From contig NZ_JABMEG010000001.1 of assembly GCF_013179735.1 (NCBI RefSeq), positions 682,001-746,000 of the forward strand: a stretch of 64,000 bases of DNA, written 5' to 3'. The position numbers and the translations under genes are program-made. The number at the start of each line of letters is the position of its first letter. The stretch's first letter is position 1. The stretch comes from Permianibacter fluminis (GTDB lineage Bacteria > Pseudomonadota > Gammaproteobacteria > Enterobacterales > Permianibacteraceae). The notes beneath the pieces are model-generated. The model was not told the DNA's origin. It searched no databases and saw only the letters and a program-made list of their open reading frames with translations. Shown in pieces: positions 11,132 to 28,391 of this stretch.

Positions 11132-11135
11132 TTGC

Positions 11136-11702: not shown

Positions 11703-11795
11703 TGAGTCTCACCCATGAGACTCAATGGCATTTGTGTCTCGTTTTTTCTGAATTATGAGACACAAGTGTATTTGAGTCTCACAAGTGAGATTCAA
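11703..11795. promoter_or_regulatory. Second palindrome array, at the end of fic
   Basis: Three inverted repeats stand in a row: TGAGTCTCA-CCCA-TGAGACTCA (11703-11724), TTGTGTCTC-N16-GAGACACAA (11732-11765) and TTGAGTCTCA-CAAG-TGAGATTCAA (11772-11795). The last overlaps the fic stop codon. The first two repeat the order, arm sequence and 4/16-base spacers of the array in front of hsdR. Confidence 0.55.
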
Positions 11796-12919: not shown

Positions 12920-12924
12920 TTTTC

Positions 12925-14103: not shown

Positions 14104-15608
14104 ACCATCGCCCTGATCGTTGCCAACACTACTGCACTTTCCACATCCAGCGCCGCGATTTCATCAAGGATGTCCTGCGGGCTGCGGTGCTTCACCTCTT
14201 CTCCACCGCTCGGGTTTTTCACCGACAGGTCATAGGTGGCGGTGTCGATGGCGCTCACATCTAGGCTCCAGCTTTTGGCGGAGTCGGCGAAGGTTTTTTG
14301 CAGGGCGATAAACTCGCTCAGATCGCTGTCATTGAGTGGGTTGGTTTTGCCCATATTGCGACCGGGGTCGAGTTGGTAGTACCAGACCTTGCGGGTCGGC
14401 GCGCCTTTCTCGAAAAACAGCACCACGGTTTTGACGCCGGCGCCTTGGAAGGTGCCGCCGGGGCAGTCGAGCACGGTGTGCAGGTTGCAGCTTTCCAAAA
14501 GGAGTTTGCGCAAGCTCACCGAGGCGTTATCGGAGTTGCTCAGGAAGGTGTTCTTGATGACGATGGCAGCGCGGCCACCGGCTTTGAGCATCTTGATGAA
14601 ATGCTGCAGAAACAGGAAGGCGGTTTCACCGGTGCGGATGGGAAAGTTCTGTTGCACCTCGGCCCGCTCCTTGCCGCCGAATGGCGGGTTGGCGAGGATG
14701 ACGTCCATACGGTCTTTGTCCTGGATGTCGGCAAGGTTCTCGGCCAGCGTGTTGGTGTGCTGAATGTTTGGTGCCTCGATGCCATGCAAAATCATGTTCA
14801 TGATGGCGATGACGTAGGCGAGGCTTTTCTTCTCTTTGCCGTAGAAGGTTTTTTCTTGCAGGGTTTTGAGATCGCTGGTTGAGAGGGTGCGTGTAGCCTG
14901 CCCTTCGACAGGCTCAGAGCCTGTCCCGTGCTCGACACGGGAGCGAACGGTGGTTAAAAAGTCATAGGCTTCGCAGAGGAAGCCGGCGGAGCCGCAGGCG
15001 CCATCATAAATGCGTTCGCCGATTTTCGGCTGGACCACCTGAATCATGGCGCGAATGAGCGGGCGCGGTGTGTAGTACTCGCCGCCGTTGCGGCCGGCAT
15101 TGCCCATGCGTTTGATTTTTTCTTCGTAGAGCATAGACAGCTCGTGCTTCTCGGTTTGCGAGCGGAAGCGCAGTTCGTCGATGTGGTCGATGATGTCGCG
15201 CAGGGTGTAGCCGCTGCGGATCTTGTTTTTGATCTCGCCGAAGATCTCGCCAATTTTGTATTCGATGGTGTTGGGGCCGCTGGCGCGCAGCTTGATTCCA
15301 TGCAGGTAAGGGAAGAGTTTGCGATCGACGAACTCGACCAGATCGTCACCGGTCAGCGCGATGTTGTGATCGAGCTTGCCGTCGGCGCCCTTTGGCGCCG
15401 CCCAGCGTTGCCAGCGGTAGTCCTCGTCGAGAATGTAGCGGTAGGGTTTACCTTCCAGTGCTGCTTCGTTGGCTTTGTCCTGCTCCAGCCCGTCAAGGTA
15501 TTTGAGGAACAAGAGCCAGGACGTCTGCTCGGTGTAATCGAGCTCGGTGGTGCAGCCGCTTTCTTTCCAGAGCGCGTCGTCGATGTTTCTAAAGGCTTGT
15601 TCGAACAT
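14100..15608 (-). CDS. hsdM: Type I restriction-modification methylase subunit
   Basis: HsdM is the N6-adenine methyltransferase. SAM-binding motif I is GACGSAGFL and the catalytic motif is NPPFGG; the N-terminal HsdM_N domain begins MFEQAFRNIDDALW, which places the start at ATG 15608 (502 aa). A peptide of about 16 residues (SRVEHGTGSEPVEGQ) interrupts the region between motif I and the YGKEKKSLAYVIAIMNM segment and is encoded by a REP-like repeat. It heads the operon hsdM-hsdS-fic. Confidence 0.94.
   Translation of the reverse strand: MFEQAFRNIDDALWKESGCTTELDYTEQTSWLLFLKYLDGLEQDKANEAALEGKPYRYILDEDYRWQRWAAPKGADGKLDHNIALTGDDLVEFVDRKLFPYLHGIKLRASGPNTIEYKIGEIFGEIKNKIRSGYTLRDIIDHIDELRFRSQTEKHELSMLYEEKIKRMGNAGRNGGEYYTPRPLIRAMIQVVQPKIGERIYDGACGSAGFLCEAYDFLTTVRSRVEHGTGSEPVEGQATRTLSTSDLKTLQEKTFYGKEKKSLAYVIAIMNMILHGIEAPNIQHTNTLAENLADIQDKDRMDVILANPPFGGKERAEVQQNFPIRTGETAFLFLQHFIKMLKAGGRAAIVIKNTFLSNSDNASVSLRKLLLESCNLHTVLDCPGGTFQGAGVKTVVLFFEKGAPTRKVWYYQLDPGRNMGKTNPLNDSDLSEFIALQKTFADSAKSWSLDVSAIDTATYDLSVKNPSGGEEVKHRSPQDILDEIAALDVESAVVLATIRAMV
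14904..14950. repeat. REP-like repeat inserted in frame in hsdM
   Basis: TTCGACAGGCTCAGAGC at 14904-14920 and GCGAACGG at 14943-14950 are the two parts of the same repeat type as in hsdR, separated here by a small nested hairpin CCCGTG-CTCGA-CACGGG. The reading frame stays open. Confidence 0.7.
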
Positions 15609-15776
15609 GGGATCGGGTTTCTGTGTTGTGGACACGACAGCGAAGGCGGGCAATGTACCTGTTGCGCCGGGTCTGTGCCTATATAGAGGCAGGGGTCTTG
15701 ACCGGGAAAGCTGATTGGGCGAGTTGGTTGGCAGACGTGGCCGAAAACCGTGGCTCAACGCCGGACCCGGTTTGGT

Positions 15777-15873
15777 ATTGGCGCGATTTCGGGTTTATTG
15801 GCTCGATTTGGCGTATCGCGCCAATAAGCCCGATTTGTTCAGTCTCGCTCCGTGTTCACGTTCCGTGAACACG
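15777..15873. promoter_or_regulatory. Inverted repeats upstream of hsdM
   Basis: Two perfect inverted repeats lie in the 290-base gap between higA and hsdM: ATTGGCGCGAT / ATCGCGCCAAT (15777-15787 and 15815-15825), and CGTGTTCACG-TTC-CGTGAACACG (15851-15873). The second looks like an operator; no candidate regulator is obvious other than the adjacent HigA. Confidence 0.5.
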
Positions 15874-15898
15874 CTGGAAAAATGAACAAGCACCAAGC

Positions 15899-16183
15899 TC
15901 AGGCCGCGACACGTCGCAGGTTGGAAGTATCCAAGGTCTGGCGCGCTTGCCAAAGGTCGTAGGCTTCCTGTAGCCGTAGCCAGAACTCCGGCGTGCTGCC
16001 GAACACCGCGGAAAGGCGGAGCGCCATTGCGGCGCTGACGCCCTGCTTTTCGTTTACCAGCGCTGACAGGGTCTTTCTTGATACTCCCAGGTGAGCAGCT
16101 GCGTCCGTGACACTCAATTCCAGTGAAGGTAAAACATCATTGCGCAGCACGGCTCCCGGGTGGGCGGGGTTGTGCATAGCCAT
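15899..16183 (-). CDS. higA: HigA-family antitoxin
   Basis: The 94-aa protein begins HNPAHPGAVLRNDVLP, typical of HigA/VapI antitoxins, and has a helix-turn-helix at LSVTDAAAHLGVSRKTLSALVNEKQGVSAAMALRLS. It neutralises HigB and represses its own operon. As usual for higBA the toxin gene comes first, 51 bases upstream. Confidence 0.93.
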   Translation of the reverse strand: MAMHNPAHPGAVLRNDVLPSLELSVTDAAAHLGVSRKTLSALVNEKQGVSAAMALRLSAVFGSTPEFWLRLQEAYDLWQARQTLDTSNLRRVAA

Positions 16184-16234
16184 AAGTCACTCCGTAAATA
16201 GAAGCCGGATTTCGCCGGTGTAGGCACTACCAAG

Positions 16235-16513
16235 TTAATGGTAGTCCTCGTAGTCCAGAACATAGGCGTCGCCGTCTCGGAATTCGAACGTCAGACGCCA
16301 GTTGCCGTTGACGGTCAGTGACCAGCGGCCTTTCTGATCTCCCTTCAGCGCATGTAAGCGCCAGCCGGGCAGGTCGAGCTCTTTGACGGTGACCGCAACA
16401 TCCAGAGCGGAAAGCTGTGTCCGCAGCCGGTCAACATGATTGGCCTGGACCCCGCTCGAATCCCCTTTGCTATAAAGGGCTTTGAGTCCCTTGTGACGGA
16501 TGGATTTGATCAT
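16235..16513 (-). CDS. higB: HigB-family mRNA-interferase toxin
   Basis: The 92-aa RelE/HigB-fold protein has IRHKGLKALYSKGDSSGVQANHVDRL at the start, LPGWRLHALKGDQKGRWSLTVNGNWRLTFEF in the middle and DYEDYH at the end, all conserved in the plasmid-maintenance killer family. It cleaves mRNA on the ribosome. AGGA lies 7 bases before ATG 16513. The gap to the displaced gyrB terminator holds the promoter. Confidence 0.93.
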   Translation of the reverse strand: MIKSIRHKGLKALYSKGDSSGVQANHVDRLRTQLSALDVAVTVKELDLPGWRLHALKGDQKGRWSLTVNGNWRLTFEFRDGDAYVLDYEDYH

Positions 16514-16903: not shown

Positions 16904-16926
16904 GATAGTTGCATAGAAACACTTAT
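16904..16926 (+). promoter_or_regulatory. NrtR-type operator 1, upstream of the SPFH gene
   Basis: GATAGTTGCATAGAAA-CACTTAT, 23 bases, matches the consensus GATAGTTGCATA-N4-CACTATC shared with three other sites in the cluster. It starts 40 bp before the next copy. Confidence 0.75.
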
Positions 16927-16943
16927 TGGCGTATCGTCACCCT

Positions 16944-16966
16944 GTTAGTTGCATAAAGCACCTATC
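16944..16966 (+). promoter_or_regulatory. NrtR-type operator 2, upstream of the SPFH gene
   Basis: GTTAGTTGCATAAAGC-ACCTATC, 23 bases, one of the tandem pair in front of the SPFH/NAD-kinase-like operon. It ends 17 bases before the start codon, so a bound regulator would block transcription. Confidence 0.75.
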
Positions 16967-16983
16967 TAACAAAGGAGACCGCC

Positions 16984-18006
16984 ATGTTTGGCTTCCGCTA
17001 CATCAAGACCCTGCCCACCAGCTACCTCATCCAATACCGGAATGGCAGCATCCGCCGCGAGGGCCAGGGTCTATCGTTCTTCTATTTCGCCCCTACGAGC
17101 TCCCTAGTTTCGATACCCGTCGCCAGCCGGGACGAGCCCTTCATGTTTCAAGAGACCACCCATGACTATCAAGAAGTCACGCTCCAGGGTCGGGTGACGT
17201 GGCGGGTGAAGGATGCCCCTCGCCTCGCCAGCATGATGAATTTCACCCTCGATGCTAGCGGCACTAAGTACGTTTCGGATGACCCGGAGAAGCTGCCAGC
17301 CCGCGTGCTGCAACAGGTGCAGGTTGCGATGCGTGCCCAACTCAATGCACTTGAGTTGCAGGTTGCACTTGCCTCCTCCGCTCAGCTAGTGGAAACCGTG
17401 CAGAAATCGCTGAGCCACAATCGCGAACTCGAAGCGCTCGGCCTGGAACTGCTCGGCCTTTCAGTACTTGCCATTAAACCAAAGCCGGAAACCGGCAAAG
17501 CACTTGAGGCACGAGTTCGCGAAAGTATTCTGCGCGAAGCCGATGAAGCAGCCTATGCTCGGCGCAATGCCGCCGTCGAACAAGAACGAACCATCAAGGA
17601 AAATGAACTTAACACCGAAGTGGCGATTGAAAAGAAGAAGCGTGAAGTTCAAGAAGAGCGGATCGAGGCCGAGCGAATTTTCAAACAGAAAAAGAACGCC
17701 ATTGCAGAGGAAGATCTGGCTGCCCAGGTCGACCGTGAAGAGAAGCGCAAGGCGCTGGTCGCTAAGGCTGCCGAGAATACCCGTGCCGAAGCAGACGCCA
17801 AGGCCTATCACTTGGCCGCGATGCTCAATACTGTCAAAGGCGTGGACGTGAAAACCCTAGAAGCGCTCGCACTCAACGGTATGGATGCTTCGCGGATGGT
17901 TGCGCTCGGCTTCCGCGGTTTAGCGGAAGGCGCAAGCAAAATTGGCCAGCTGAATGTCAGCCCCGATCTGCTGCGTGAACTGATTACCAGCGAGGCCAAG
18001 GCATGA
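16984..18006 (+). CDS. SPFH/Band-7 domain membrane-scaffold protein
   Basis: The 340-aa protein has an SPFH domain (about residues 15-160; YLIQYRNGSIRREGQGLSFFYF, SIPVASRDEPFMFQETTHDYQEVTLQGRVTWRV), then a long charged coiled coil (about 185-265; READEAAYARRNAAVEQERTIKENELNTEV onward) and a C-terminal helical part. No clear membrane span is present, so it may bind the membrane by its N-terminus or be soluble. AAAGGAG lies 7-13 bases upstream of the ATG. It is the first gene behind two NrtR-type operators and overlaps the NAD-kinase-like gene by four bases. SPFH proteins form membrane-associated rings; here it probably scaffolds the neighbouring NAD+-related enzymes, which is inference. Confidence 0.85.
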   Translation: MFGFRYIKTLPTSYLIQYRNGSIRREGQGLSFFYFAPTSSLVSIPVASRDEPFMFQETTHDYQEVTLQGRVTWRVKDAPRLASMMNFTLDASGTKYVSDDPEKLPARVLQQVQVAMRAQLNALELQVALASSAQLVETVQKSLSHNRELEALGLELLGLSVLAIKPKPETGKALEARVRESILREADEAAYARRNAAVEQERTIKENELNTEVAIEKKKREVQEERIEAERIFKQKKNAIAEEDLAAQVDREEKRKALVAKAAENTRAEADAKAYHLAAMLNTVKGVDVKTLEALALNGMDASRMVALGFRGLAEGASKIGQLNVSPDLLRELITSEAKA

Positions 18007-18920
18007 GCAGCGACCGCAAGGTTGTACTGGTGACTCGACGCACCCGGCTAGAGGAGCTCGTGGTGCGTCACAATTCGGTCGGCCAAGCAAAATTTTACAT
18101 TGAGCACTTGGGCGCGGATTTCGCTGACTATGTACTCGAGCACGACACCTACCGTCGCGCTTTGGATAGCTGCCTACAGCGGGTAGAACCCATGGTTCGT
18201 ATCCAGCAGCTGGACCGCAGCTTCCTACCCAACTTTATATTTGCTCCAGACGATATCATTGTGACGCTTGGCCAGGATGGACTGGTTGCCAACACACTCA
18301 AATACCTGGATACGCAACCTGTAGTAGCCATCAATCCAGATCCTACACGCTGGGACGGTGTGCTGTTGCCATTTCAAGTGCAGGACACAGCGGCAATCGT
18401 TGCTGAGGCATTGGCAAACAAGCGGCAATGTAAACGCATCACAATGGCCGAAGTCACACTGAATGACGGTCAGCGCCTGCGCGCCGTAAACGATCTATTC
18501 ATCGGCCAAAGAACGCATGTCTCGGCCCGGTATGCCATTCAACACGGCCAGCTGAAAGAACGGCAGTCATCGAGTGGCGTCATCGTTTCTACCGGGCTCG
18601 GCTCTACCGGCTGGTTACGCAGTGTGCTGACCACCGCGCGTAGGCTTGAGCACCCTGACGATGTGCCGCATTACGAGCCGCTACCATGGGATAAAAAGCA
18701 GCTGCGATTTGTAGTGCGAGAGGCTTTCCCTTCGCGCGCGACAGGTACTGAGTTGATCATGGGTCAGGTTGATAAGGCGATGCCACTGCGTATCGCCTCG
18801 GAGATGCCTGAAGGTGGCGTGATTTTCGCTGATGGCATGGAGGTCGATGCGCTGCAGTTTGGTGCCGGCTTTACCGCACATATCCAGCCTGCAGCGCATC
18901 AAGCCGTATTGGTGGTTTGA
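18003..18920 (+). CDS. Divergent NAD-kinase-like protein
   Basis: The 305-aa protein follows the NAD kinase fold motif by motif. The GGDG loop appears as TLGQDGL, the motif after it as INPDPTRWDGVLLPF, the Asn-Asp motif as VNDLFIGQ, and the STPTGSTAY-type loop as SSSGVIVSTGLGSTGW. Catalytic Asp is kept but the first Gly of GGDG is replaced by Gln. Known NAD kinases phosphorylate the 2'-OH of NAD+ to NADP+; the changed loop could mean a different nucleotide or altered activity. ATGA overlap with the SPFH gene couples translation. It converges with the nadR-like gene. Confidence 0.75.
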   Translation: MSSDRKVVLVTRRTRLEELVVRHNSVGQAKFYIEHLGADFADYVLEHDTYRRALDSCLQRVEPMVRIQQLDRSFLPNFIFAPDDIIVTLGQDGLVANTLKYLDTQPVVAINPDPTRWDGVLLPFQVQDTAAIVAEALANKRQCKRITMAEVTLNDGQRLRAVNDLFIGQRTHVSARYAIQHGQLKERQSSSGVIVSTGLGSTGWLRSVLTTARRLEHPDDVPHYEPLPWDKKQLRFVVREAFPSRATGTELIMGQVDKAMPLRIASEMPEGGVIFADGMEVDALQFGAGFTAHIQPAAHQAVLVV

Positions 18921-18945
18921 AGCTCCACCTGTCCTATCAATGGCG

Positions 18946-19911
18946 TTACAACCCGCTCAATACCTTGCGGACTATGGCCGCTCGATCTGCAATCGTGCCT
19001 AGAGTCGATTGATAGGAAATGCCTCGACGGTCCAGATCGTAACGCACCAAGCCTTGCAGGCGGCTGCGCCAGAGCACATTGTCGCGCCAGCCATCCTGCT
19101 CGAACGGAATGTCGTCCCCGCACAAGAATGCAATGGAATAGCGTGCAATGCACTCATCGGCCAAGGCATGCAGCCGCGGTAGCCCACCACCGTTGTAGTA
19201 ATAGCTAAAGAACAACGTTGTCAGCGCATTGGTATCAACGAAAAGGTATCGGTTAGCTTGCAGGATTGCCTCATCCTCCAGTTGGCGATGCCGCTCCGCA
19301 ATCTCAACATAGTCTTCGAGCACGAGCCGCCCATTTCGGGTCTGCCAGACCTCACGCCCATACTCCGGCACAAAACACGTATTCATTACGGAAGCCATGT
19401 GCGCAGCTAACGTTGATTTGCCGGTTGACTCCGCACCTAGAAATACCACTCTTCGAACAAAGTGTGCATAAACAGTGGCCGGTAGCATGCTACGGTGAGC
19501 ATGGACATCCTTACGAATCTCACTACCGGAAATGGGCACCCGCTGGCGCCCAACATCCACCGATACATGCTGGCATCCAATAACCTGTGCAAATCCAGGC
19601 CCGTAGGTCTCACTGCTGTAGACCACGTCAGGGAACAATCCGCGATGCTGCAACCACTGTTTTACAAATTGACGGTGCTCATCATCCGGAGCATTGTTTG
19701 CGGGAGCATCCAATGGTGTCAGGACTTCAAAAGCCGGGAATAACTTCTGAACCCAGCCAGCCCTTACCGGCGCGCGCATGTCCGGGAAGTCTGGGTTGGA
19801 CCAGACCAATACAGTTACTCGCTTCGCGCCAGCACGTGCTGCCTCAAGCAGTAGCATGTGGCCGCAATGAAGCGGCGCAAACTTACCTACTACCAAAGCA
19901 TGCTTATGCAT
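18946..19911 (-). CDS. nadR: NadR-like NMN adenylyltransferase / ribosylnicotinamide kinase
   Basis: The protein is bifunctional. The nucleotidyltransferase part has VVGKFAPLHCGHMLLLEAA (GxFxPxHxGH) and ISGSEIRKD, and the kinase part has the P-loop FLGAESTGKST (about residue 165) and a following EYGREVW motif. It converts nicotinamide riboside to NMN and NMN to NAD+. At 321 aa it lacks the N-terminal helix-turn-helix of E. coli NadR, so it is enzyme only, and regulation is left to NrtR. ATG 19911 overlaps the pnuC stop. It is the last gene of the leftward operon nrtR-ARH-NADAR-pnuC-nadR. Confidence 0.92.
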   Translation of the reverse strand: MHKHALVVGKFAPLHCGHMLLLEAARAGAKRVTVLVWSNPDFPDMRAPVRAGWVQKLFPAFEVLTPLDAPANNAPDDEHRQFVKQWLQHRGLFPDVVYSSETYGPGFAQVIGCQHVSVDVGRQRVPISGSEIRKDVHAHRSMLPATVYAHFVRRVVFLGAESTGKSTLAAHMASVMNTCFVPEYGREVWQTRNGRLVLEDYVEIAERHRQLEDEAILQANRYLFVDTNALTTLFFSYYYNGGGLPRLHALADECIARYSIAFLCGDDIPFEQDGWRDNVLWRSRLQGLVRYDLDRRGISYQSTLGTIADRAAIVRKVLSGL

Positions 19912-20476
19912 GAATCTCCCGCTCCCGACGCCAGACAACAAGCCCGCGCAGTGATAGGCTGAACAGTACAAACTGAAGCAGAAACAATGCTAGGTATTCG
20001 TAGTGCCAAAAGTACACTGATTGCAACAGATTAACCGGCAACCAAACGTACCAACTCCACACCCACTTCCGGGTCGTTGCCCAGTTTGCTAGCAAAGACA
20101 GTGACACGATGGCGAATTGCAACCAGGCCCAGGTATTGGAAAAACCGGTTATGTAGGCCGTATAGGCAAAGATTAGTAGCGTCAGCACCCAACCAAGGTT
20201 GTACCAAAACAGCTCGTTAAAGGGATGTTGCTGCTGGTCACGACGTTGCTCCAGATGCCATAACCAGTAGCCATGAATGCCGAAGATCAGATATGCCAAC
20301 TGAAGCCCAGCCAACATAAACTGCTCACCCGCCAAGAAAAGAATGAAGTACGGCAACAAGCTTGCATTTGAAAAATGCCAATACGCAAGTTTCTTCGGTA
20401 TGAGATACAGCAATGAAACCCCGACGAGGATCGATCCTGTCCAGTCAAAGACCCATGCCGGGACTATCTCATTCAT
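19904..20476 (-). CDS. pnuC: PnuC-type nicotinamide riboside transporter
   Basis: The 190-aa protein has about seven hydrophobic helices and PnuC signatures (DWTGSILVGVSLLYLIPKKLAYWHF; YGWHLEQRR-like as YWLWHLEQRR; TRKWVWSWYVWLPVNLLQSVYFWHYEYLALFLLQFVLFSL). PnuC takes up nicotinamide riboside by facilitated diffusion; trapping needs the ribosylnicotinamide kinase encoded next. The ATG at 20476 overlaps the NADAR stop as ATGA. Confidence 0.92.
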   Translation of the reverse strand: MNEIVPAWVFDWTGSILVGVSLLYLIPKKLAYWHFSNASLLPYFILFLAGEQFMLAGLQLAYLIFGIHGYWLWHLEQRRDQQQHPFNELFWYNLGWVLTLLIFAYTAYITGFSNTWAWLQFAIVSLSLLANWATTRKWVWSWYVWLPVNLLQSVYFWHYEYLALFLLQFVLFSLSLRGLVVWRREREIHA

Positions 20477-21045
20477 GCTGACTTCGCCTGCAGGTTCGCT
20501 CGAACAACCATCAGTGCAAATCCAAGTAGATTCAGACCCTGCCATTGTTTAGGGTTACGTGCAGCCAAATCGGCCTCAGCAAGACCAATGCCCCAGACCC
20601 GATCTACTGGCGACGCTTCAACCAATACCTTGTTGCCAGTAGCTAGCAGGTATTCAGCTAGCTGCGCATTTTGTTCGAACTTGTGCTGATTGGCGGCAAC
20701 GACAATCTCAAAGCGCTGGGCCTGCCACAGGACTTCGTTAAATCCCTTTACTTCGCGACCGAATGCTTTCGCAGCACCAGGTGTTTTCGCCTCAATAACC
20801 TTTGCGCGAATCGCCTCATCAACAAACAATCGCGCCTTTTCGGCCATCATGTAATGCTCTGCCGATGGATACCGCACCTCCTCCACGAAAAACGGCGCCT
20901 CATACCACTGACTCAAACATGACTTGCCGATCTGAACACCCTTGCCTTGATGGCCCCAGAAGAATAGGTAGTTCACCTCACCACCTAGGCGCAGATAGTC
21001 TTCGAGTTCGCTCAGGTTTTTGATCATGCTTTCTGCCACGTTCAT
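20473..21045 (-). CDS. NADAR-family (YbiA-like) protein
   Basis: The 190-aa protein carries the whole NADAR domain: VNYLFFWGHQ, LSQWYEAPFFVE, YPSAEHYMMAEKARLF, FNEVLWQAQRFEIVVAANQHKFEQN, ASPVDRVWGIGL and WQGLNLLGFALM. Members of this family are N-glycosidases acting on riboflavin intermediates (YbiA) or on ADP-ribose-type conjugates, including ADP-ribosylated DNA bases. In this setting, between an ADP-ribosylglycohydrolase and NAD+ salvage genes, an ADP-ribose-derivative substrate is more likely than a riboflavin one; that is inference. Confidence 0.9.
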   Translation of the reverse strand: MNVAESMIKNLSELEDYLRLGGEVNYLFFWGHQGKGVQIGKSCLSQWYEAPFFVEEVRYPSAEHYMMAEKARLFVDEAIRAKVIEAKTPGAAKAFGREVKGFNEVLWQAQRFEIVVAANQHKFEQNAQLAEYLLATGNKVLVEASPVDRVWGIGLAEADLAARNPKQWQGLNLLGFALMVVRANLQAKSA

Positions 21046-21063
21046 TTCTTGGCTCGTTATTAG

Positions 21064-21984
21064 TTAGGGCATGGCATTCGCGGCGTCATACAGGGCGCTG
21101 GCCTTGCTGGCAATTAGCTCACGGTCTACCAGTCGGCTAAGCCAACGCTCGGGAATCGCAGATACACCATGCAACGCACCCGCCAGTTGCCCAGTGATAG
21201 CTGCGGTTGTGTCGGTATCATCACCAAGCCTTATCGCTGTCAGGATGGCCTCTTCGAAACTGCTGGTGCCATGAACACACCACAATGCCGCTTCGATCGA
21301 ATGCACGACATAGCCCGAACTGGCGATCTGCTCTACAGTTTTGTGCTGCCATTCACCACTAGCGATGCGTTGCAGCGATGGTGAGCTCGGTACATATTTC
21401 GGCGTAGCGAACAGAGTAGTCTTCGGTGTTCCTTTCAGCGCTCGAATGAGGTATTCAGCATATAGTTGACAGGCTTCGATGCACTCAACGGCACCATGCG
21501 TGGTCTTTGAACTCAGGCCTGCCTGAGTAATCGCTTGATCCAAATCGTTTAGCCAGAACATTGCGACAGGTGCCAGGCGCATCAAGCTGCCGTTGCCGGC
21601 CGAGTTGGGATTAGTGCTACCGGCGAACGCTTCACCGGTTGCGATGTATTGCCGCAGCGCCACCGAGGTTGTCACGCCGATGTCAAAGCAACTTCCATTA
21701 CTGCTCAGGTAGCCGTAGTTCATCCAATTGCAGTAGCGATTCATCTGATCGACGGCATCGAAGCCACGGCAATGCAGCAAGCTTTCGGCTAGACAAAGCG
21801 CCATGGAGGTATCGTCAGTCCATTCACCGGGTCCGAGCTCAAACGGACCCCCACCTAACATTTCGGTGGGGGTTTCAAATGCGCCGCGCTCGCGAAACTC
21901 CACCTGAGCGCCGAGTGCGTCACCGCAAGCCAATCCGAGCAAGCAGCCTTCAAAGCGTTCTTGTTGTTCCATTTTGCTGCTCAC
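21064..21984 (-). CDS. ADP-ribosylglycohydrolase (DraG/ARH type)
   Basis: The 306-aa protein shows the ARH fold signatures: GCLLGLACGDALGAQVEF at the start, GPGEWTDDTSMALCLAESL with the metal-binding Thr-Asp-Asp, NGSLMRLAPVA, and LGDDTDTTAAITGQLAGAL with the second metal site. Such enzymes remove ADP-ribose from Arg, Ser, DNA ends or small molecules using two Mg2+ ions. The start overlaps the nrtR stop by four bases. It could recycle ADP-ribose conjugates into the salvage pathway encoded around it. Confidence 0.92.
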   Translation of the reverse strand: MSSKMEQQERFEGCLLGLACGDALGAQVEFRERGAFETPTEMLGGGPFELGPGEWTDDTSMALCLAESLLHCRGFDAVDQMNRYCNWMNYGYLSSNGSCFDIGVTTSVALRQYIATGEAFAGSTNPNSAGNGSLMRLAPVAMFWLNDLDQAITQAGLSSKTTHGAVECIEACQLYAEYLIRALKGTPKTTLFATPKYVPSSPSLQRIASGEWQHKTVEQIASSGYVVHSIEAALWCVHGTSSFEEAILTAIRLGDDTDTTAAITGQLAGALHGVSAIPERWLSRLVDRELIASKASALYDAANAMP

Positions 21985-22721
21985 GCCCCGCTGGTAATGA
22001 TGCGCGGGAAGAAATGCTGCCGCGTACCGTCTTTCAATCTATACAGCTGTGCCGGTCGATTAGCGCCGCCGCGAAACACTCCATCGATCTCCTCCAGGAT
22101 GTCGGCGTCATTGATGCGTCGGCGGAAGGCGCTTTTATCGATGGGTCGGCCAAGCAAGGTTTCGAATGTCCGCTGCAAATCAGTCAGCGTGAATTGCTCC
22201 GGCAGCAGATGCACCGGCAAGGCTGTGTACTCAGCCTTCGCCCGCAAACGCTCGACGGCCTGTTGCAGTAACTGGGCGTGATCGAAAGCCAATGACTCAC
22301 TCACCGACTCGCCGTGTATCGGAAACCAGGCAACATCATCGGCGTTGCCACCCTTGCTGAGTTCAATCGCTTCGCTGTTGATCAACGCAAAGTAGACGAC
22401 GGTGACCGACCAACCGCGCGGGTCTCGTTTGCTATTGCCCACCGTCAGCAACTGCTCAACGTAGGGACTGGCAACCCCAGTCTTGGCCTTCAGGATGCGC
22501 AGCGCTGCCTGTTCCAGGTCACGGTCTTCGTCCAGTCGCAGAAAGCCGCCAGGGATCGCCCACAACCCTTGGGCCGGATGGTCACTACGACGGACCAGCA
22601 AAACCTGCAGCTGGCCATCCTTGAGCGTGAAGATCACGGTATCGACCGTGGTCAGCGGCGCATCAAAGGCCTTGGCGTCATAGCCCTTCAGGTAATCGGC
22701 TTCGCTAATTGCCTTGCTCAT
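21981..22721 (-). CDS. nrtR: NrtR Nudix-type transcriptional regulator of NAD metabolism
   Basis: The N-terminal Nudix domain (about residues 20-165; VDTVIFTLKDGQLQVLLVRR, GLWAIPGGFLRLDEDRDL) has a degraded Nudix box: the REUxEE residues are replaced in AALRILKAKTG, so it should bind but not hydrolyse. The C-terminal part (FTLTDLQRTFETLLGRPIDKSAFRRRI) is the winged helix of the NrtR family. NrtR proteins repress NAD+ synthesis and salvage genes and release DNA when they bind ADP-ribose or related NAD+ products. Four matching operator-like sites at the two promoters of this cluster fit that role. Confidence 0.92.
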   Translation of the reverse strand: MSKAISEADYLKGYDAKAFDAPLTTVDTVIFTLKDGQLQVLLVRRSDHPAQGLWAIPGGFLRLDEDRDLEQAALRILKAKTGVASPYVEQLLTVGNSKRDPRGWSVTVVYFALINSEAIELSKGGNADDVAWFPIHGESVSESLAFDHAQLLQQAVERLRAKAEYTALPVHLLPEQFTLTDLQRTFETLLGRPIDKSAFRRRINDADILEEIDGVFRGGANRPAQLYRLKDGTRQHFFPRIITSGA

Positions 22722-22765
22722 AGCCTTTCCTCATGCTGCCCGACGCGATCGGGCTTCCTTCAAAA

Positions 22766-22788
22766 GATAGTTGCATATTGCCACTATC
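22766..22788. promoter_or_regulatory. NrtR-type operator 3, divergent nrtR/pncA region
   Basis: GATAGT-TGCATATTGCC-ACTATC is a 23-bp site with perfect 6-bp inverted arms. It lies in the shared promoter region of the leftward nrtR operon and the rightward pncA operon, 39 bp (start to start) from the next copy. Confidence 0.85.
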
Positions 22789-22804
22789 ATGGATAGAGTA
22801 CAAC

Positions 22805-22827
22805 CATAGTTTCGTAGAGCCACTATC
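22805..22827. promoter_or_regulatory. NrtR-type operator 4, divergent nrtR/pncA region
   Basis: CATAGT-TTCGTAGAGCC-ACTATC matches operator 3 in arms and spacing. With operators 1 and 2 it defines a GATAGT-N11-ACTATC consensus with TTGCATA in the left half of three copies. Confidence 0.8.
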
Positions 22828-22873: not shown

Positions 22874-23539
22874 ATGGACCATCTCGTTATCGACCGCATC
22901 GAACAGGTCGCCAGCTTTGATGTCGACCCGCAGTACACCTTCACGCCGGTCTGCCCGAATGAGTTGCCGGTTCTCGGCGGCGATGAGATCGCGGCCGAAT
23001 TGAACTCACAGGCTCGGTTTGCCTCGGTCCGCATCGGCTCAAAAGATGCCCACTCACCGGCCGCCGCCTGGGTCGCCGATACCGATCACCCCCAGTTTTC
23101 CCCAGTTGAAGGTCGGGACATGGACATCCGCTGGGCCGCTCACGCCGTGCCGGGCACCAAGGGATTTGAATTGCTTGAAGGCTTGCCGAAACCGGCTGAC
23201 TACGACTTCTTTGTCTGGAAAGGCGTTGAGTTAGACATGCACCCCTACGGTGCCTGCTACCACGACCTGGCTGACCGGCTTAGCACTGGTGTAATCGAGT
23301 TCCTAAGAGCCAAGCAGATCCGCACCGTCATCGTCGGCGGCCTCGCCACCGACTACTGTGTCAAAACGACGGTGATGCAGCTGTGCCGCGCGGGTTTCAA
23401 TGTTGTGGTCAACCTCGGAGCCTGCCGCGGTATCGCCGCCGAAACTATCACAGCGGCCATTACCGAAATGAAAGCAGCTGGTGTTCGCTTTGTGAACCGT
23501 GCGGATGAATTGAACAACAACGGCATCGCTGCCGCCTAA
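22874..23539 (+). CDS. pncA: Nicotinamidase
   Basis: PncA hydrolyses nicotinamide to nicotinate and ammonia. The isochorismatase-like fold shows the catalytic triad Asp16 (SFDVDPQYTF), Lys116 (VWKGVEL) and Cys162 (LATDYCVKTT), and the metal site GSKDAHSP at 56-62. The length is 221 aa. It is the first gene of the rightward salvage operon and lies directly behind two NrtR-type operators; GAGGGAAA precedes the ATG. Confidence 0.95.
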   Translation: MDHLVIDRIEQVASFDVDPQYTFTPVCPNELPVLGGDEIAAELNSQARFASVRIGSKDAHSPAAAWVADTDHPQFSPVEGRDMDIRWAAHAVPGTKGFELLEGLPKPADYDFFVWKGVELDMHPYGACYHDLADRLSTGVIEFLRAKQIRTVIVGGLATDYCVKTTVMQLCRAGFNVVVNLGACRGIAAETITAAITEMKAAGVRFVNRADELNNNGIAAA

Positions 23540-23571: not shown

Positions 23572-24741
23572 ATGATTATCGAATCGCTGCTTGATACCGA
23601 CCTCTACAAATTCACGATGATGCAAACCGTACTGCATCAGTTTCCTGCAGCCCAAGTTGAGTACCGCTTCAAATGTCGGAACAAGGGGGTCGACTTGCGA
23701 CCGCTGGTCGAAACCATACAACAAGAAATCGATCATCTCTGCACGCTGCGCTTCCAACCCGACGAACTGGATTACCTGAGCAAGCTACGTTTTCTGAAGC
23801 CGGACTTCATTGATTTCCTGCGGCTATTTCAATTGAACCCGCGCTTCGTGACCATCACTACCGATCCGGAATTCGATATCGTAGTTCGCGGTCCCTGGGT
23901 GCACACAATTCTGTTTGAGATCCCGCTGCTGGCCATCGTCAACGAGATCTATTTCCGGCACAGCCAACCAACTCCTAACTACGAGGAAGGCCGGCGCCGA
24001 CTCAACGAGAAAATCGGGCAAGTCAAAGCGCTGCAACCGTACGACCGCTTTCTGTTCTCGGACTTTGGCACTCGCCGCCGCTTCAACCGTGACTGGCATT
24101 ATGAGGTGGTGGACAAGCTGATCCAGGAACTACCGAATCAATTGACCGGCACCAGCAATGTGCACCTGGCGCGTACTCGCGGGATCCGACCGATTGGCAC
24201 CATGGCACATGAGTTTCTACAGGCCTGCCAAGCTCTCGGGGTCCGCTTGGTCGATAGCCAAAAATTTGCGCTGGAAGCCTGGGTCAAGGAGTACCGCGGC
24301 GACCTTGGTATTGCACTAAGCGATGTTTGTGGTGTCGATGCGTTCCTGCGCGATTTCGATTTGTATTTCTGCAAGCTGTTTGATGGTGTTCGCCACGACT
24401 CTGGCGACCCCTTCCTGTGGGGGGAGAAAGTGTTAGCGCACTATCAGAAATTTCGTATCGATGCCCGTAGCAAGACCTTGGTGTTTAGCGACGGCCTGAC
24501 CTTCCCGCGAGCACTAGAGCTGTATCAGCGCTTCAAAGACCGTGCCAATACCGGTTTTGGCATCGGTACCAATTTGACCAATGACTTGGGTTACGAACCA
24601 CTCAACATCGTGATCAAAATGACCGAATGCAACGGCCAACCAGTCGCCAAACTGAGCGACTCACCCGGCAAAACGATGTGCCGCGACGAAACTTACCTGG
24701 CTTACCTCCGTAAGGTTTTCCAAGTAGGCGACGCTGCGTAA
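23572..24741 (+). CDS. pncB: Nicotinate phosphoribosyltransferase
   Basis: PncB makes nicotinate mononucleotide from nicotinate and PRPP, using ATP. The family start [16 protein letters not shown], the segment [13 protein letters not shown], the phosphorylated-His region [12 protein letters not shown] and the phosphate-binding [10 protein letters not shown] are all present. The 389-aa length is typical of the bacterial PncB type. It lies 32 bases after pncA and 10 bases before nadE. Confidence 0.96.
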
Positions 24742-24751: not shown

Positions 24752-26449
24752 ATGAAAATTTTGATGGCCCAATGCAATTTTACGGTTGGCGATTTTTCCG
24801 GCAACAAACAGAAGATTCTCGATCTGGTCTGGCGCCATGGTCACGACCACGACCTTATTGTGTTCTCGGAACTCTGCCTATCCGGCTATTACCCAATGGA
24901 CCTGGTGCACCAACCGGGATTTCTCCAGGCTCAGGAAGAGGCGATAGAAGCTGTACGTGAAGCCACTCGCTCGTTTGGGGCTGCCGTGGTGCTGGGTTTT
25001 ATCGACCGTAACCATTGGACGGGCAAGCCGTTTCACAATGGCCTGATGGTACTGGCAAAAGGTGTGACACAGCTTGTCTATCACAAGAGACTGCTGCCCA
25101 CCTACAACATCTTCGATGAAGCCCGTCACTTCGAACCAGGCAATTTGCCTGGCATGCTGATGCTGAATGGATATCGCATCGGCTTCGCCATTTGTGAGGA
25201 TCTGTGGAATGACGATGAAGACGGTGACTACGCCACGATGCCAATCAAGTTGCTGGCTCGGGAGAAGCCTGACTTCATTGTCAGCATCAATGCGTCGCCA
25301 TCGAATCTGGGCAAGCAAGCCGAACGCTTGATTCGGTTTCGTAAGCTCAGCGCCAAGTACCGGCTACCGCTGATCTATGTGAACCAAGTCGGCGGCAATG
25401 ATGAGATCGTGTTTGACGGCAACAGCTTTGTGACCAATGCCAACGGAGAGCTGATTGCGCAGCTACCAGCCTTTGCTGAGCACACCGCTTCGTTGATGCT
25501 CGATGAAAACGATGAGCTGTCCTGCACGGTGCATCCGCGCTGCAACGAACCCAGCGATGTTGAGTTTTACTACCAGCAAATCGTCATGGGCTTGCGCGAC
25601 TACGTGAGCAAATGCGGTTTTCGTGGCGTTGTGGTCGGTTCTAGCGGCGGCATCGATAGCGCCGTAACACTGGCCTTGGCCCATGATGCTCTCGGTGCCG
25701 AGAACGTGGTTGCGGTAACCATGCCATCCCGGTTTTCGTCTGAAGGCAGCGTTACCGACTCGGTGGCGCTCTGCACCAACCTAGGGATCAAGCTGTATCG
25801 GGCTCCCATTGAAGCGCAATTCAAGCAAGCGGTGGCCGACTTCACGGAGGCATTCGGCGAGGCGCCGTCGCGCTTAACGCAGGAAAACATGCAGGCACGC
25901 ATCCGTGGCCGCATCCTGATGGAGTATTCCAACCATCACGGCAACCTGGTGCTATCAACTGGTAACAAGAGTGAGATGTCGGTTGGCTACGCCACACTGT
26001 ACGGCGACATGAATGGCGGTCTGAACCTTATCGGCGATCTGTACAAAATGGAGGTATATGCGCTGGCTCGCTACCTCAACGAGCACCACGGCCGCGAAAT
26101 CATCCCGCAGGCCATTATCGATAAAGCGCCGTCAGCAGAATTGTTTGAAGGCCAGAAGGATCAGGACTCGTTGCCACCCTACCCGGTGCTCGATGCCATT
26201 CTGCGGCTGTATATCGAACGCGATCTGCTGACCGAAGCGGAAATCGCTGAGAACAATGCTTTGGTTGTGCGCTACGCGGATTTCGATGTGAACCGCGTGC
26301 TGCGCATGGTCGATGCCGCTGAGTTTAAACGCCGGCAGGCGCCACCCATCATTCGCGTACATCGGCGCTCGTTCGGCACCGGTCGCCGGATGCCTATCGC
26401 CAAGCGCTGGACCAGCCCTGCTGAAACGGTGGTAACCCAACATGACTGA
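24752..26449 (+). CDS. nadE: Glutamine-dependent NAD+ synthetase
   Basis: NadE amidates deamido-NAD+ with glutamine as nitrogen donor. The N-terminal nitrilase-type glutaminase domain (about 1-250) shows the Glu (VFSELCLSGYYP), Lys (YHKRLLPTYNIFDEARHF) and Cys (FAICEDLWNDD) triad; the C-terminal synthetase domain has the PP-loop VGSSGGIDSAVT and LSTGNKSEMSVGYATLYGDMNGG. The 565-aa length fits the two-domain enzyme. With pncA and pncB it completes deamidating salvage except for an adenylyltransferase step; NadR-type enzymes mainly use NMN, so NaMN adenylation may rely on a chromosomal NadD. Confidence 0.96.
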   Translation: MKILMAQCNFTVGDFSGNKQKILDLVWRHGHDHDLIVFSELCLSGYYPMDLVHQPGFLQAQEEAIEAVREATRSFGAAVVLGFIDRNHWTGKPFHNGLMVLAKGVTQLVYHKRLLPTYNIFDEARHFEPGNLPGMLMLNGYRIGFAICEDLWNDDEDGDYATMPIKLLAREKPDFIVSINASPSNLGKQAERLIRFRKLSAKYRLPLIYVNQVGGNDEIVFDGNSFVTNANGELIAQLPAFAEHTASLMLDENDELSCTVHPRCNEPSDVEFYYQQIVMGLRDYVSKCGFRGVVVGSSGGIDSAVTLALAHDALGAENVVAVTMPSRFSSEGSVTDSVALCTNLGIKLYRAPIEAQFKQAVADFTEAFGEAPSRLTQENMQARIRGRILMEYSNHHGNLVLSTGNKSEMSVGYATLYGDMNGGLNLIGDLYKMEVYALARYLNEHHGREIIPQAIIDKAPSAELFEGQKDQDSLPPYPVLDAILRLYIERDLLTEAEIAENNALVVRYADFDVNRVLRMVDAAEFKRRQAPPIIRVHRRSFGTGRRMPIAKRWTSPAETVVTQHD

Positions 26450-26798
26450 AGAAACGGTCACGCTGTACCGTCCCACCGGCCCGAGGGAACTGGAATTGGT
26501 TGCACAAAGTGAATACCGCCGTTGGCCACCGCGATTGCCGGATCAACCGATTTTCTATCCGGTAACCAATGAGCAATATGCAGCGGAAATTGCCAGCCAA
26601 TGGAATGTGAAAGACAGCGGTGTGGGCTATGTCGCCCGCTTCATGGTCAAGAAGACCTTTATGGACCGCTATCCGGTTCAGCAAGTCGGTACTTCACACC
26701 ACACCGAATGGTGGGTACCCGCCGAAGAGCTAGAAGCACTAAATGACAATATCGTCGGACGGATCGAAGTGATCCGAGAATTCCGGCGACCTGAATAG
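26442..26798 (+). CDS. 118-aa protein of the type annotated ADP-ribosylation/crystallin J1
   Basis: The start overlaps the nadE stop by 8 bases, so it is coupled to NAD+ synthetase. The sequence has VTLYRPTGPRELELV near the N-terminus, PIFYPVTNEQYAAEIASQWNV in the middle and HTEWWVPAEELEALNDNIVGRIEVI at the end. I recognise this pattern from short bacterial proteins named ADP-ribosylation/crystallin J1; I know of no proven activity. LYRPTG and the closing WVPAEEL segment recall small ADP-ribosyltransferase-like folds, which is only a suggestion. Its conserved place among NAD+ genes argues for a substrate related to NAD+ or ADP-ribose. Confidence 0.65.
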   Translation: MTEETVTLYRPTGPRELELVAQSEYRRWPPRLPDQPIFYPVTNEQYAAEIASQWNVKDSGVGYVARFMVKKTFMDRYPVQQVGTSHHTEWWVPAEELEALNDNIVGRIEVIREFRRPE

Positions 26799-26809: not shown

Positions 26810-27358
26810 ATGAGTGACGAAAAAACAAGTAAATTTCTGAGTTACGTGCTGCGGCACAAACCAGATTCCATCGGGCTGAACCTGGACAGCAATGGCTGGG
26901 CACAGGTCAGCGAGCTGATCGACTGTGCGGCACGCGCTGGAACGCCAATCGATCTCGGTACCTTGACCCGAATTGTCCGGGAAAGCGACAAACAGCGTTT
27001 TGCACTTTCGACTGATGGCCAGCGCATTCGGGCCAACCAAGGTCATTCGATTACCGTGGAACTGGCGTTGCCGAACCGTGAACCGCCTGAATTCCTCTTT
27101 CACGGTACCGCTACACGCTTCTTGGATGACATCTCTGGCTTTGGGTTGCAACCCAAAGCCCGGCATGACGTGCACCTGTCAGAGAACTACGAAACCGCCC
27201 TCGCGGTAGGGAAGCGTCATGGCAAGGTGATTGTGCTCAAGGTGTTGGCACGAAAGATGTACGAAGCCGGGCACTCGTTTCAGTGCTCTGCGAACGGAGT
27301 ATGGCTGACTAAGCAGGTGCCGCCCCAGTTCTTTACTATTGAGTCAGAACGACTCTGA
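26810..27358 (+). CDS. kptA: RNA 2'-phosphotransferase (Tpt1/KptA family)
   Basis: KptA removes an RNA 2'-phosphate by transferring it to NAD+, giving nicotinamide and ADP-ribose 1'',2''-cyclic phosphate. The family signatures are KFLSYVLRHKPDSIGLNLDSNGWA at the start, IRANQGHS (His for the 2'-phosphate), LFHGTATRFLDDI and HVHLS-type DVHLSENYETALAVGKRHG. The 182-aa length is normal. The nicotinamide it releases is the substrate of PncA in the same operon. It suggests RNA repair, or use of the fold on other ADP-ribose chemistry. Confidence 0.92.
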   Translation: MSDEKTSKFLSYVLRHKPDSIGLNLDSNGWAQVSELIDCAARAGTPIDLGTLTRIVRESDKQRFALSTDGQRIRANQGHSITVELALPNREPPEFLFHGTATRFLDDISGFGLQPKARHDVHLSENYETALAVGKRHGKVIVLKVLARKMYEAGHSFQCSANGVWLTKQVPPQFFTIESERL

Positions 27359-27378: not shown

Positions 27379-28047
27379 ATTAAGCATTTAATCAAATCGC
27401 CGTACCTGCAACAACAAGCCCATTGGCCTGAGACAGGGCGGCATATTCTCGCCCAGTTCGATGATGATTCGGTGGTGGTTTACCAAGCCTACCGACCTGC
27501 TATCGCCGACTACGCGGTCAACCATCAGCGTTTCGGTGGTGAGTTCAGCTTCACTAGAATGAGCTGGGTAAAGCCAAACTTTCTTTGGATGATGTACCGG
27601 TCTGGCTGGGCCACCAAGGAGGGTCAGGAGCGCATTCTCGCTTTATGGCTCCAGCGTGATTTTTTTGATGAATTGTTGGCATCGGCGGTGGCCTCTTCGT
27701 TTGACAGTAATCGGTATGCAACCCGGGACGACTGGGCAACGGCAATAGAGACCTCCGATGTTCGGCTGCAGTGGGATCCGGATCATGATCCACACGGGAA
27801 ACCGCTAGCCCGTCGTGCCGTTCAGCTTGGTCTGAGGGGGCCATCGTTGCGACGCTTCTCCGACGAGGCGATTGTGAAAGTTGAAGACATAACACCATTT
27901 GTACAACAGCAAAGGGATTTGTTGGAACAAGGTGTCGATTCGCTGTTCACTCCTTTGGAGTTGGTTTACTGGCCAGCCAATTCAAACACAGCAAATTCCG
28001 TTGGGCTGGATGCCCCGCTAAGTTACGCGCCGACTCACACCACGTGA
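27379..28047 (+). CDS. DUF4291 family protein, probable ATT start
   Basis: The family core is clear: VVVYQAYRPAIADYAVNHQRFGGEFSFTRMSWVKPNFLWMMYRSGWATKEGQERILALWL. Conserved sequence of this family continues upstream of the first standard start (GTG 27472) as HWPETGRHILAQFDDDS. No ATG, GTG or TTG lies in frame between the stop at 27340 and that GTG, but ATT at 27379 has GGAGA 7 bases before it, so I give ATT as the start (222 aa). Function is not known to me. Its position directly after kptA suggests a part in the same NAD+/RNA-repair process. Confidence 0.75.
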   Translation: MKHLIKSPYLQQQAHWPETGRHILAQFDDDSVVVYQAYRPAIADYAVNHQRFGGEFSFTRMSWVKPNFLWMMYRSGWATKEGQERILALWLQRDFFDELLASAVASSFDSNRYATRDDWATAIETSDVRLQWDPDHDPHGKPLARRAVQLGLRGPSLRRFSDEAIVKVEDITPFVQQQRDLLEQGVDSLFTPLELVYWPANSNTANSVGLDAPLSYAPTHTT

Positions 28048-28133: not shown

Positions 28134-28391
28134 ATGCAGGACGAGCAAACTTTCCAAAGCAGGGTCCAGACTGAAGAGGCTGTGTCGAGCACCATCCTGG
28201 AGCGCATCAGTCTGTTGACTGGGATACAGCAAGCGTTGCTTGCACTCGTTCCGGCGGACCATGCTGGGGCTTGGGTTCGTCAAGACAATCCAGTATTCCA
28301 TGGCCAGCAAGTCATTCAGGTCATGATCTCCGAAGGTAATTCAGGAATGATTCGGGTCCGACGTTATCTGGAAGCCCAATTAAACAGTTAG
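28134..28391 (+). CDS. MbcA/ParS/Xre-type antitoxin, short and without a partner toxin
   Basis: The 85-aa product matches the C-terminal toxin-binding part (DUF2384): GIQQALLALVPADHAGAWVRQDNPVFHGQQVIQVMISEGNSGMIRVRRYLEAQL. The usual N-terminal helix-turn-helix region is shortened. No RES-type toxin gene follows; the next gene is a transposase. Known partners of such antitoxins (RES/MbcT) destroy NAD+, which is notable beside an NAD+ salvage operon. It may be a decaying remnant or a protective orphan. Confidence 0.6.
   Translation: MQDEQTFQSRVQTEEAVSSTILERISLLTGIQQALLALVPADHAGAWVRQDNPVFHGQQVIQVMISEGNSGMIRVRRYLEAQLNS

What the first reader, a model, noticed from the sequence alone, without database searches (positions are those of the whole stretch)
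16904..22827. Four copies of one 23-bp operator tie the cluster into a single regulon
Sites at 16904, 16944, 22766 and 22805 share GATAGT-N11-ACTATC with TTGCATA in three copies. They occur as pairs 40 and 39 bp apart, about four helix turns, before SPFH and between nrtR and pncA. So the SPFH/NAD-kinase-like pair, 4 kb away, is under the same control as the salvage genes. NrtR repressors are known to let go of DNA on binding ADP-ribose.
Basis: partly seen in the sequence, partly recalled or inferred. Interest (0 to 1): 0.75.

Follow-up and report, generated by a model that had tools for sequence, protein, structure and literature searches.

The report
NrtR operators controlling an NAD-repair gene cluster
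Four short DNA switches, probably bound by a repressor that lets go when it senses ADP-ribose, sit only at the two promoter regions of one gene cluster and tie NAD-rebuilding enzymes, ADP-ribose-removing enzymes and a little-known SPFH/NAD-kinase-like pair into one control unit; that pair lies beside the same type of repressor gene in many unrelated bacteria.

Summary
All four 23-bp sites exist, but only 22766 carries both GATAGT/ACTATC arms; 22805, 16944 and 16904 have 1, 2 and 3 arm mismatches, which alone would be weak (about 10 matches with up to 3 mismatches expected per 64 kb). Three tests make them convincing. (1) In the 4.36-Mb genome, pattern and profile searches return essentially only these sites. 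(2) A matrix trained only on nrtR/SPFH intergenic regions of other bacteria ranks 16904 first and 16944 second among 64,000 positions; 22766 is 4th and 22805 7th. (3) The sites have the 8-N7-8 layout published for M. smegmatis NrtR, and the window's NrtR shares the recognition helix of NrtRs whose operators read TAGTTG-N7-CAACT(T)A. The SPFH/NAD-kinase-like link is not a quirk of this genome: 63 of 94 loci with the kinase-like gene have an NrtR gene within 600 bp, in several phyla. Best reading: one local, auto-regulated, probably ADP-ribose-induced NrtR regulon combining NAD salvage, ADP-ribose removal and the SPFH/kinase-like module. Binding and ligand response are inferred. Spacing is 3.7-3.8 turns, not four. 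No paper found links NrtR with SPFH, but key regulon papers were not readable here.

The parts
16904..16926 (+). NrtR operator O1 upstream of SPFH (GATAGTTGCATAGAAACACTTAT)
   Evidence: Top of 64,000 positions with a matrix trained on other genomes; 0 expected in shuffles. Its 'degenerate' right arm ACACTTA recurs in Bradyrhizobium second operators, e.g. CTTAGTTGCCCAGACACACTTAT in L117.
16944..16966 (+). NrtR operator O2 upstream of SPFH (GTTAGTTGCATAAAGCACCTATC), ends 17 bp before the SPFH ATG
   Evidence: Second-best position in the window with the independent matrix; genome-wide pattern hit.
22766..22788 (+). NrtR operator O1 of the nrtR/pncA intergenic region; perfect arms (GATAGTTGCATATTGCCACTATC)
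   Evidence: 0 mismatches; only perfect copy in the genome; 4th position in the window with the independent matrix.
22805..22827 (+). NrtR operator O2 of the nrtR/pncA intergenic region (CATAGTTTCGTAGAGCCACTATC)
   Evidence: 1 arm mismatch; genome-wide pattern hit; weakest with the independent matrix, 7th position.
16984..18006 (+). SPFH protein, 340 aa, no strong hydrophobic segment, one long helix (168-284)
   Evidence: Pfam Band_7 6.6e-17; model pLDDT 82.7; Foldseek best hit 7vhq SPFH family, E 3e-11; hydropathy.
18003..18920 (+). NAD-kinase-like protein, 305 aa; overlaps SPFH by 4 bp; GQDG in place of GGDG
   Evidence: AlphaFold pLDDT 93.2; Foldseek best hit human mitochondrial NAD kinase 7r4j, E 6.9e-21, TM 0.76; Q91 at least 90% and G90, D92, G93 invariant in the family; no Pfam hit.
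18946..19911 (-). NadR-like (NMN adenylyltransferase + ribosylnicotinamide kinase, no HTH); last gene of the nrtR operon
   Evidence: TIGR01526 1.7e-49, below the curated cut-off; AAA_28; gene gaps.
19904..20476 (-). PnuC-type nicotinamide riboside/NMN transporter
   Evidence: PF04973 3.1e-20.
20473..21045 (-). NADAR-domain protein (ADP-ribose hydrolase family)
   Evidence: PF08719 5.1e-52.
21064..21984 (-). ADP-ribosylglycohydrolase (DraG/ARH family)
   Evidence: PF03747 1.9e-80; NF041672 1.3e-100, below the curated cut-off.
21981..22721 (-). NrtR repressor: Nudix domain with degenerate Nudix box plus NrtR winged helix; only NrtR_WHD protein in the genome
   Evidence: PF21906 8.9e-24, NUDIX 1.2e-14; 3gz5/3gz6 E 1.3e-66; single genome match; Nudix box GGFLRLDEDRDLEQAALRILKAKTGV.
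22874..23539 (+). PncA-like nicotinamidase (isochorismatase fold)
   Evidence: PF00857 1.7e-14; PRK11609 1e-18, below the curated cut-off.
23572..24741 (+). Nicotinate phosphoribosyltransferase (pncB)
   Evidence: PF04095 6.2e-78.
24752..26449 (+). Glutamine-dependent NAD synthase (nadE); a second copy lies elsewhere in the genome
   Evidence: PRK13981 1.1e-191; second full match at C2:650108.
26442..26798 (+). 118-aa protein of unknown family, overlaps nadE; recurs beside SPFH/NAD-kinase-like elsewhere
   Evidence: No Pfam, NCBIfam or PHROGs hit; found in L101, L130, L141, L154.
26810..27358 (+). Tpt1/KptA RNA 2'-phosphotransferase
   Evidence: PF01885 2e-46; PRK00819.1-4 over cut-off.
27472..28047 (+). 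DUF4291 protein, possibly the last gene of the salvage operon (113-bp gap)
   Evidence: PF14124 2.7e-62; gap.

Best explanation
The four sites are operators of the NrtR encoded at 21981-22721. NrtR dimers bind TAGTTG-N7-CAACTA-type palindromes in pairs and repress three transcription units: nrtR-ARH-NADAR-pnuC-nadR (autoregulation), pncA-pncB-nadE-ORF118-tpt1 (perhaps DUF4291), and SPFH-NAD-kinase-like. When NAD+ is broken down or ADP-ribose is cleaved off macromolecules, ADP-ribose builds up, binds the catalytically degenerate Nudix domain and releases NrtR. The cell then makes a second, inducible set of NAD salvage enzymes, two ADP-ribose hydrolases, Tpt1 and the SPFH/kinase-like pair: an NAD-loss or ADP-ribosylation recovery response. 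Shown here: sites, genome-wide restriction to this cluster, one NrtR gene, conserved nrtR-SPFH-kinase adjacency, matching operators in other bacteria. Inferred: binding, repression, ADP-ribose release, operon extents. Least certain: what the SPFH/kinase-like pair does; I favour an SPFH oligomer scaffolding an NAD(H)-binding kinase.
For: Genome-wide searches find essentially only these sites. A matrix from other genomes ranks 16904 1st and 16944 2nd of 64,000 positions. Single NrtR_WHD gene in the genome. 90 of 94 kinase-like loci have SPFH adjacent; 63 of 94 have nrtR within 600 bp, 51 of 71 where both flanks are at least 2.5 kb. In 36 divergent nrtR/SPFH regions a pair of 23-bp sites is found 22-25 bp apart; nrtR-SPFH-kinase operons of gammaproteobacteria have TTAGTGT-N7-ACACTAA pairs. 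Recognition-helix type goes with operator type. The M. smegmatis NrtR operator is a 23-bp GTTTTCGA-N7-TCGAAAAC palindrome and is released by ADP-ribose (PMC6800001). Full-length match to 3gz5/3gz6. Duplicate nadE elsewhere.
Against: No binding or expression data. 22805 is weak with the independent matrix (3.75 such scores expected per 64 kb). Pair spacing 39-40 bp differs from 22-26 bp in relatives. No sigma-70-like promoter passes the scan at either region, so how the operators block transcription is unresolved. Some SPFH/kinase pairs have no nrtR nearby (L019, L021, L112, L116, L157 and others), and three gammaproteobacterial genomes with the kinase-like gene (G116, G177, G240) have no NrtR match. 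One NrtR (C. glutamicum NdnR) is reported to bind DNA better with NAD+ instead (PMC6800001), so the ligand response cannot be assumed.
Confidence: 0.8

Rival explanations
1. Only the nrtR/pncA pair is an NrtR operator; the SPFH-upstream sites are decayed remnants or chance look-alikes and SPFH/kinase is controlled otherwise.
For: By arm palindromy 16904 and 16944 are weaker (3 and 2 mismatches); 16904 is missed by pattern searches.
Against: The matrix from other genomes ranks exactly these two highest; the right arm of 16904 recurs in Bradyrhizobium operators; nrtR adjacency to SPFH/kinase is widespread.
Confidence: 0.07
2. The sites bind NrtR but the effector is NAD+ or another nucleotide, acting as co-repressor, so the regulon answers NAD sufficiency rather than ADP-ribose accumulation.
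For: C. glutamicum NrtR/NdnR is reported to bind DNA more tightly with NAD+ (PMC6800001); the cluster holds NAD salvage genes.
Against: The closest solved relative is Shewanella NrtR, described as ADP-ribose-dependent (title of Huang 2009, cited in PMC6800001); two ADP-ribose hydrolases sit in the nrtR operon.
Confidence: 0.15
3. The sites are operators of a different, unlinked regulator and NrtR proximity is incidental.
For: No direct binding data; one pair lies 4 kb from nrtR.
Against: Same motif architecture flanks nrtR in other phyla; motif type tracks NrtR recognition helix; sites are confined to the nrtR cluster in the genome.
Confidence: 0.03

Closest known systems
NrtR regulons (Rodionov 2008; Huang 2009; M. 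smegmatis NrtR, PMC6800001; P. aeruginosa nrtR with pncA-pncB1-nadE, PMC6363681)
   Same: Nudix plus winged-helix repressor, divergent from NAD genes, 23-bp palindrome with N7 spacer (as in M. smegmatis), degenerate Nudix box.
   Different: Adds ADP-ribose hydrolases, Tpt1, pnuC-nadR and an SPFH/NAD-kinase-like pair; two operator pairs at 39-40 bp; different half-site TAGTTG. Whether the 2008 paper or RegPrecise already lists SPFH or kinase targets could not be checked.
ARG-centred systems with Nudix or WYL repressors (PMC9503650, section 3.8)
   Same: ADP-ribose-removing enzymes under a Nudix-HTH repressor, predicted to be off until ADP-ribose accumulates; NADAR sometimes present.
   Different: Built around (poly)ADP-ribosylglycohydrolase ARG with phosphatases and chaperones; the paper's main text has no mention of SPFH/band-7 or NAD kinase. 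Here the hydrolase is DraG/ARH-type and NAD salvage genes are included.
NAD kinase family (human NADK2, 7r4j)
   Same: Fold and D of the GGDG motif, ND/NE and TGxGSxxW motifs.
   Different: GGDGT is GQDG(L/V) throughout the family, below Pfam and NCBIfam thresholds; partnered with SPFH.
SPFH proteins (HflK/C, stomatin, flotillin; vault MVP)
   Same: SPFH domain followed by a very long helix.
   Different: No strong hydrophobic anchor in the window protein; partner is a kinase-like protein rather than NfeD or FtsH.

Membership tests
NrtR repressor | N-terminal Nudix domain plus NrtR winged helix | tested here: met
   PF00293 and PF21906 over cut-off; full-length match to 3gz5/3gz6.
NrtR repressor | Over the curated NCBIfam equivalog cut-off (NF050029); a narrow sub-family test, not needed for the family as a whole | tested here: not met
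   275 bits against a cut-off of 400: family member, not the narrow equivalog.
NrtR repressor | Gene next to NAD metabolism genes | tested here: met
   Divergent from pncA-pncB-nadE.
NrtR repressor | Palindromic operator of about 21-23 bp with central spacer near its own promoter | tested here: met
   22766 and 22805 between nrtR and pncA; 8-N7-8 layout as in PMC6800001.
NrtR repressor | ADP-ribose lowers DNA binding | not testable with these tools
   Inferred from family members only.
NrtR regulon member: SPFH/NAD-kinase-like | NrtR-type operator before the unit | tested here: met
   16904 and 16944 rank 1st and 2nd in the window with a matrix from other genomes.
NrtR regulon member: SPFH/NAD-kinase-like | Conserved link to nrtR in other genomes | tested here: met
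   63 of 94 loci within 600 bp.
NrtR regulon member: SPFH/NAD-kinase-like | Derepressed without NrtR | not testable with these tools
   No expression data.
NAD kinase | NAD kinase fold | tested here: met
   Foldseek 7r4j E 6.9e-21.
NAD kinase | GGDGT motif | tested here: not met
   GQDGL; Q at least 90% across the family, G, D, G invariant. So 'NAD-kinase-like', not filed as NAD kinase.
ARG-centred anti-ADP-ribosylation system (PMC9503650) | ARG-type glycohydrolase plus rhodanese-type phosphatase or chaperone | tested here: not met
   Hydrolase is PF03747 DraG/ARH type and no phosphatase or chaperone gene was identified among the cluster genes scanned.

The most novel reading that the evidence does not exclude
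SPFH plus the GQDG kinase-like protein is a widespread, so far undescribed core branch of NrtR regulons: an SPFH cage or ring that holds an NAD(H)- or ADP-ribose-binding kinase, made on demand when ADP-ribose signals NAD loss, either to lock NAD as NADP or to phosphorylate ADP-ribose or its derivatives.
Probability: 0.3. Interest if true: 0.75.

Novelty: new variant of a known kind. Interest (0 to 1): 0.5.

Why it matters
NrtR regulons are known as simple switches for NAD synthesis. Here one local NrtR switch appears to join NAD rebuilding, removal of ADP-ribose marks, an NAD-using RNA end-repair enzyme and an SPFH/kinase-like pair, which points to a response to NAD destruction or ADP-ribosylation attack. 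The recurrence of nrtR-SPFH-kinase-like across several phyla gives an uncharacterised gene pair a testable inducer and pathway.

Tried and rejected
The palindrome-only test (12 arm bases, up to 3 mismatches) does not separate the sites from chance and was replaced by a matrix trained on other genomes. A promoter reading, TTGCAT-N17-TATCGT before SPFH and TTGCAT-N17-TAGAGT before pncA, would explain why TTGCATA is conserved, but it matches only 7 of 12 consensus bases and the scans found nothing, so it is left open. A third site between each pair at the 22-bp register was looked for by eye and not found. Matrix hits at 1160 (score 11.7) and 19954 (7.5) are within chance expectation (0.33 per 64 kb for 11.7) and were not taken as regulon members. 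Viral origin: no NrtR found in viral contigs, no kinase-like gene in phages, so a phage NAD-rebuilding cassette is unlikely. PADLOC gave only a candidate family (PDC-M42C) for the NADAR gene. The original NrtR papers (PMC2330246, PMC2896262) could not be read and RegPrecise was not available, so earlier listing of SPFH or a kinase as an NrtR target there cannot be ruled out; full-text searches for NrtR with SPFH or with sugar kinase found no paper.
Full report
What is in the sequence. The four 23-bp sites are at the stated coordinates. Only 22766 has both arms GATAGT and ACTATC; 22805, 16944 and 16904 carry 1, 2 and 3 arm mismatches. TTGCATA is in three. The pairs are 40 and 39 bp apart, 3.7-3.8 turns. 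By arm palindromy alone the set is not remarkable: about 10 matches with up to three mismatches are expected per window and 15 are seen.

Why they are nevertheless real. Whole-genome searches (4.36 Mb, window at C1:682001-746000) with two consensus patterns and a profile return the cluster's sites and only one other place in total. The profile contains the window sites, so it is not independent, and its prefilter scored 150 of 554 candidates. For an independent test I took 36 loci from other bacteria where nrtR and SPFH diverge. Each contains a pair of 23-bp sites, 22-25 bp apart, of the type TTAGTTG-N7-CAACTTA. A matrix from the 51 distinct sites, with no window sequence in it, ranks 16904 first and 16944 second among 64,000 window positions, 22766 fourth and 22805 seventh. 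Two divergent regions with other motif types (L153, L162) were left out of the training set by eye. Shuffled windows reach the score of 16904 zero times, that of 16944 0.07 times, 22766 0.5 times and 22805 3.75 times per 64 kb; the last two gain weight from lying in the nrtR/pncA interval and from the genome-wide search. The apparently broken right arm of 16904 (ACACTTA) also occurs in Bradyrhizobium second operators. In R. etli p42f, not used in training, the top position of the 12.9-kb locus is again in the nrtR/SPFH interval, with a second site 22 bp on, though with low scores.

Who binds. The genome has one NrtR_WHD protein, encoded at 21981-22721 between the two operon groups. It matches Shewanella NrtR 3gz5/3gz6 over its full length. 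Its Nudix box lacks the usual glutamates (RILKAKTGV in place of REUXEEXGU), as in regulators that sense but do not cleave. Its recognition helix (DKSAFRRR) is of the type found in NrtRs with TAGTTG operators, whereas DKRNFRK goes with TTAGTGT-N7-ACACTAA operators. The 8-N7-8 layout equals the published M. smegmatis NrtR operator GTTTTCGA-N7-TCGAAAAC, which ADP-ribose releases (PMC6800001). Binding here is inferred, not measured.

What is controlled. Gene gaps suggest nrtR-ARH-NADAR-pnuC-nadR on the minus strand, pncA-pncB-nadE-ORF118-tpt1 (DUF4291 after a 113-bp gap) on the plus strand, and SPFH/kinase-like on the plus strand (4-bp overlap), converging with the nadR end. Families. A second full nadE elsewhere makes the cluster's salvage arm look like an accessory, inducible set.

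The SPFH/kinase-like pair. Of 94 loci with the kinase-like gene, 90 have SPFH adjacent and 63 have nrtR within 600 bp; among loci with at least 2.5 kb on both sides, 51 of 71. These include Ralstonia, Burkholderia relatives, Bradyrhizobium, Clostridia, a Spirochaeta and a Nitrospirae genome; Rhizobium plasmids show the same order. The sample leans to close relatives and to Bradyrhizobium. In class-wide samples 13 of 369 genomes, the window's own included, carry a clear kinase-like gene (a 14th, weak match is left out) while full-length NrtR matches are a minority of genomes, so the adjacency is far beyond chance. Other genes of this cluster (nadE, pncB, tpt1, NADAR, DUF4291, ORF118) recur beside the pair in L101, L103, L130, L141, L143 and L154. 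The kinase-like protein has the NAD kinase fold (model pLDDT 93.2; best match human mitochondrial NAD kinase) but GQDG instead of GGDG nearly throughout the family. The SPFH protein resembles HflK/C, stomatin, flotillin and vault proteins and lacks a strong hydrophobic segment.

Mechanism. NrtR represses the three units; ADP-ribose, from NAD breakdown or removal of ADP-ribose marks, releases it; the cell rebuilds NAD, strips ADP-ribose from macromolecules and makes the SPFH/kinase-like pair. Steps shown: sites, their confinement, the single regulator, conserved association. Steps inferred: binding, repression, ligand. The function of the pair is open; the promoters could not be placed.

Compared with the known. 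It works like, and by domain tests is, an NrtR regulon, though the regulator scores below the narrow NCBIfam equivalog cut-off. It resembles in logic the ARG-centred systems with Nudix repressors predicted in PMC9503650 but lacks their defining parts. I found no paper joining NrtR with SPFH or a sugar kinase, but the founding NrtR papers were not available.

Noticed in passing
26442-26798: 118-aa protein without Pfam, NCBIfam or PHROGs match, 70-76% identical in Telluria and Pelomonas and about 46% in Clostridia, repeatedly beside SPFH/kinase-like, Tpt1, DUF4291 or NADAR: an uncharacterised NAD/ADP-ribose-linked family.
   Followed up: partly
L024, L027-L030, L032, L023: nrtR-SPFH-kinase-like operons in gammaproteobacteria carry a different operator, TTAGTGT-N7-ACACTAA, in pairs 23-26 bp apart, and a different NrtR recognition helix (KRNFRK): a natural specificity switch.
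   Followed up: partly
L095, L099, L100, L109, L112, L116, L151, L157, L158, L160, L019, L021: SPFH/kinase-like pairs without a recognisable nrtR nearby; their regulator is unknown.
   Followed up: no
8681-16513 and 28134-29467: The cluster is flanked by type I restriction-modification genes, a Fic protein and a HigBA-type toxin-antitoxin pair on one side and an Xre/ParS-type antitoxin fragment and an integrase-core transposase on the other, so it may sit in a mobile or defence island.
   Followed up: no
G000:C2:650108-650854 (L173), same genome, outside the window: A second full-length nadE outside the cluster, so NAD synthase is duplicated.
   Followed up: partly
L078:5080-10201: DUF4291-Tpt1-NADAR genes near an nrtR without the SPFH/kinase-like pair in a genome of the same order: parts of the cluster travel separately with nrtR.
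   Followed up: no
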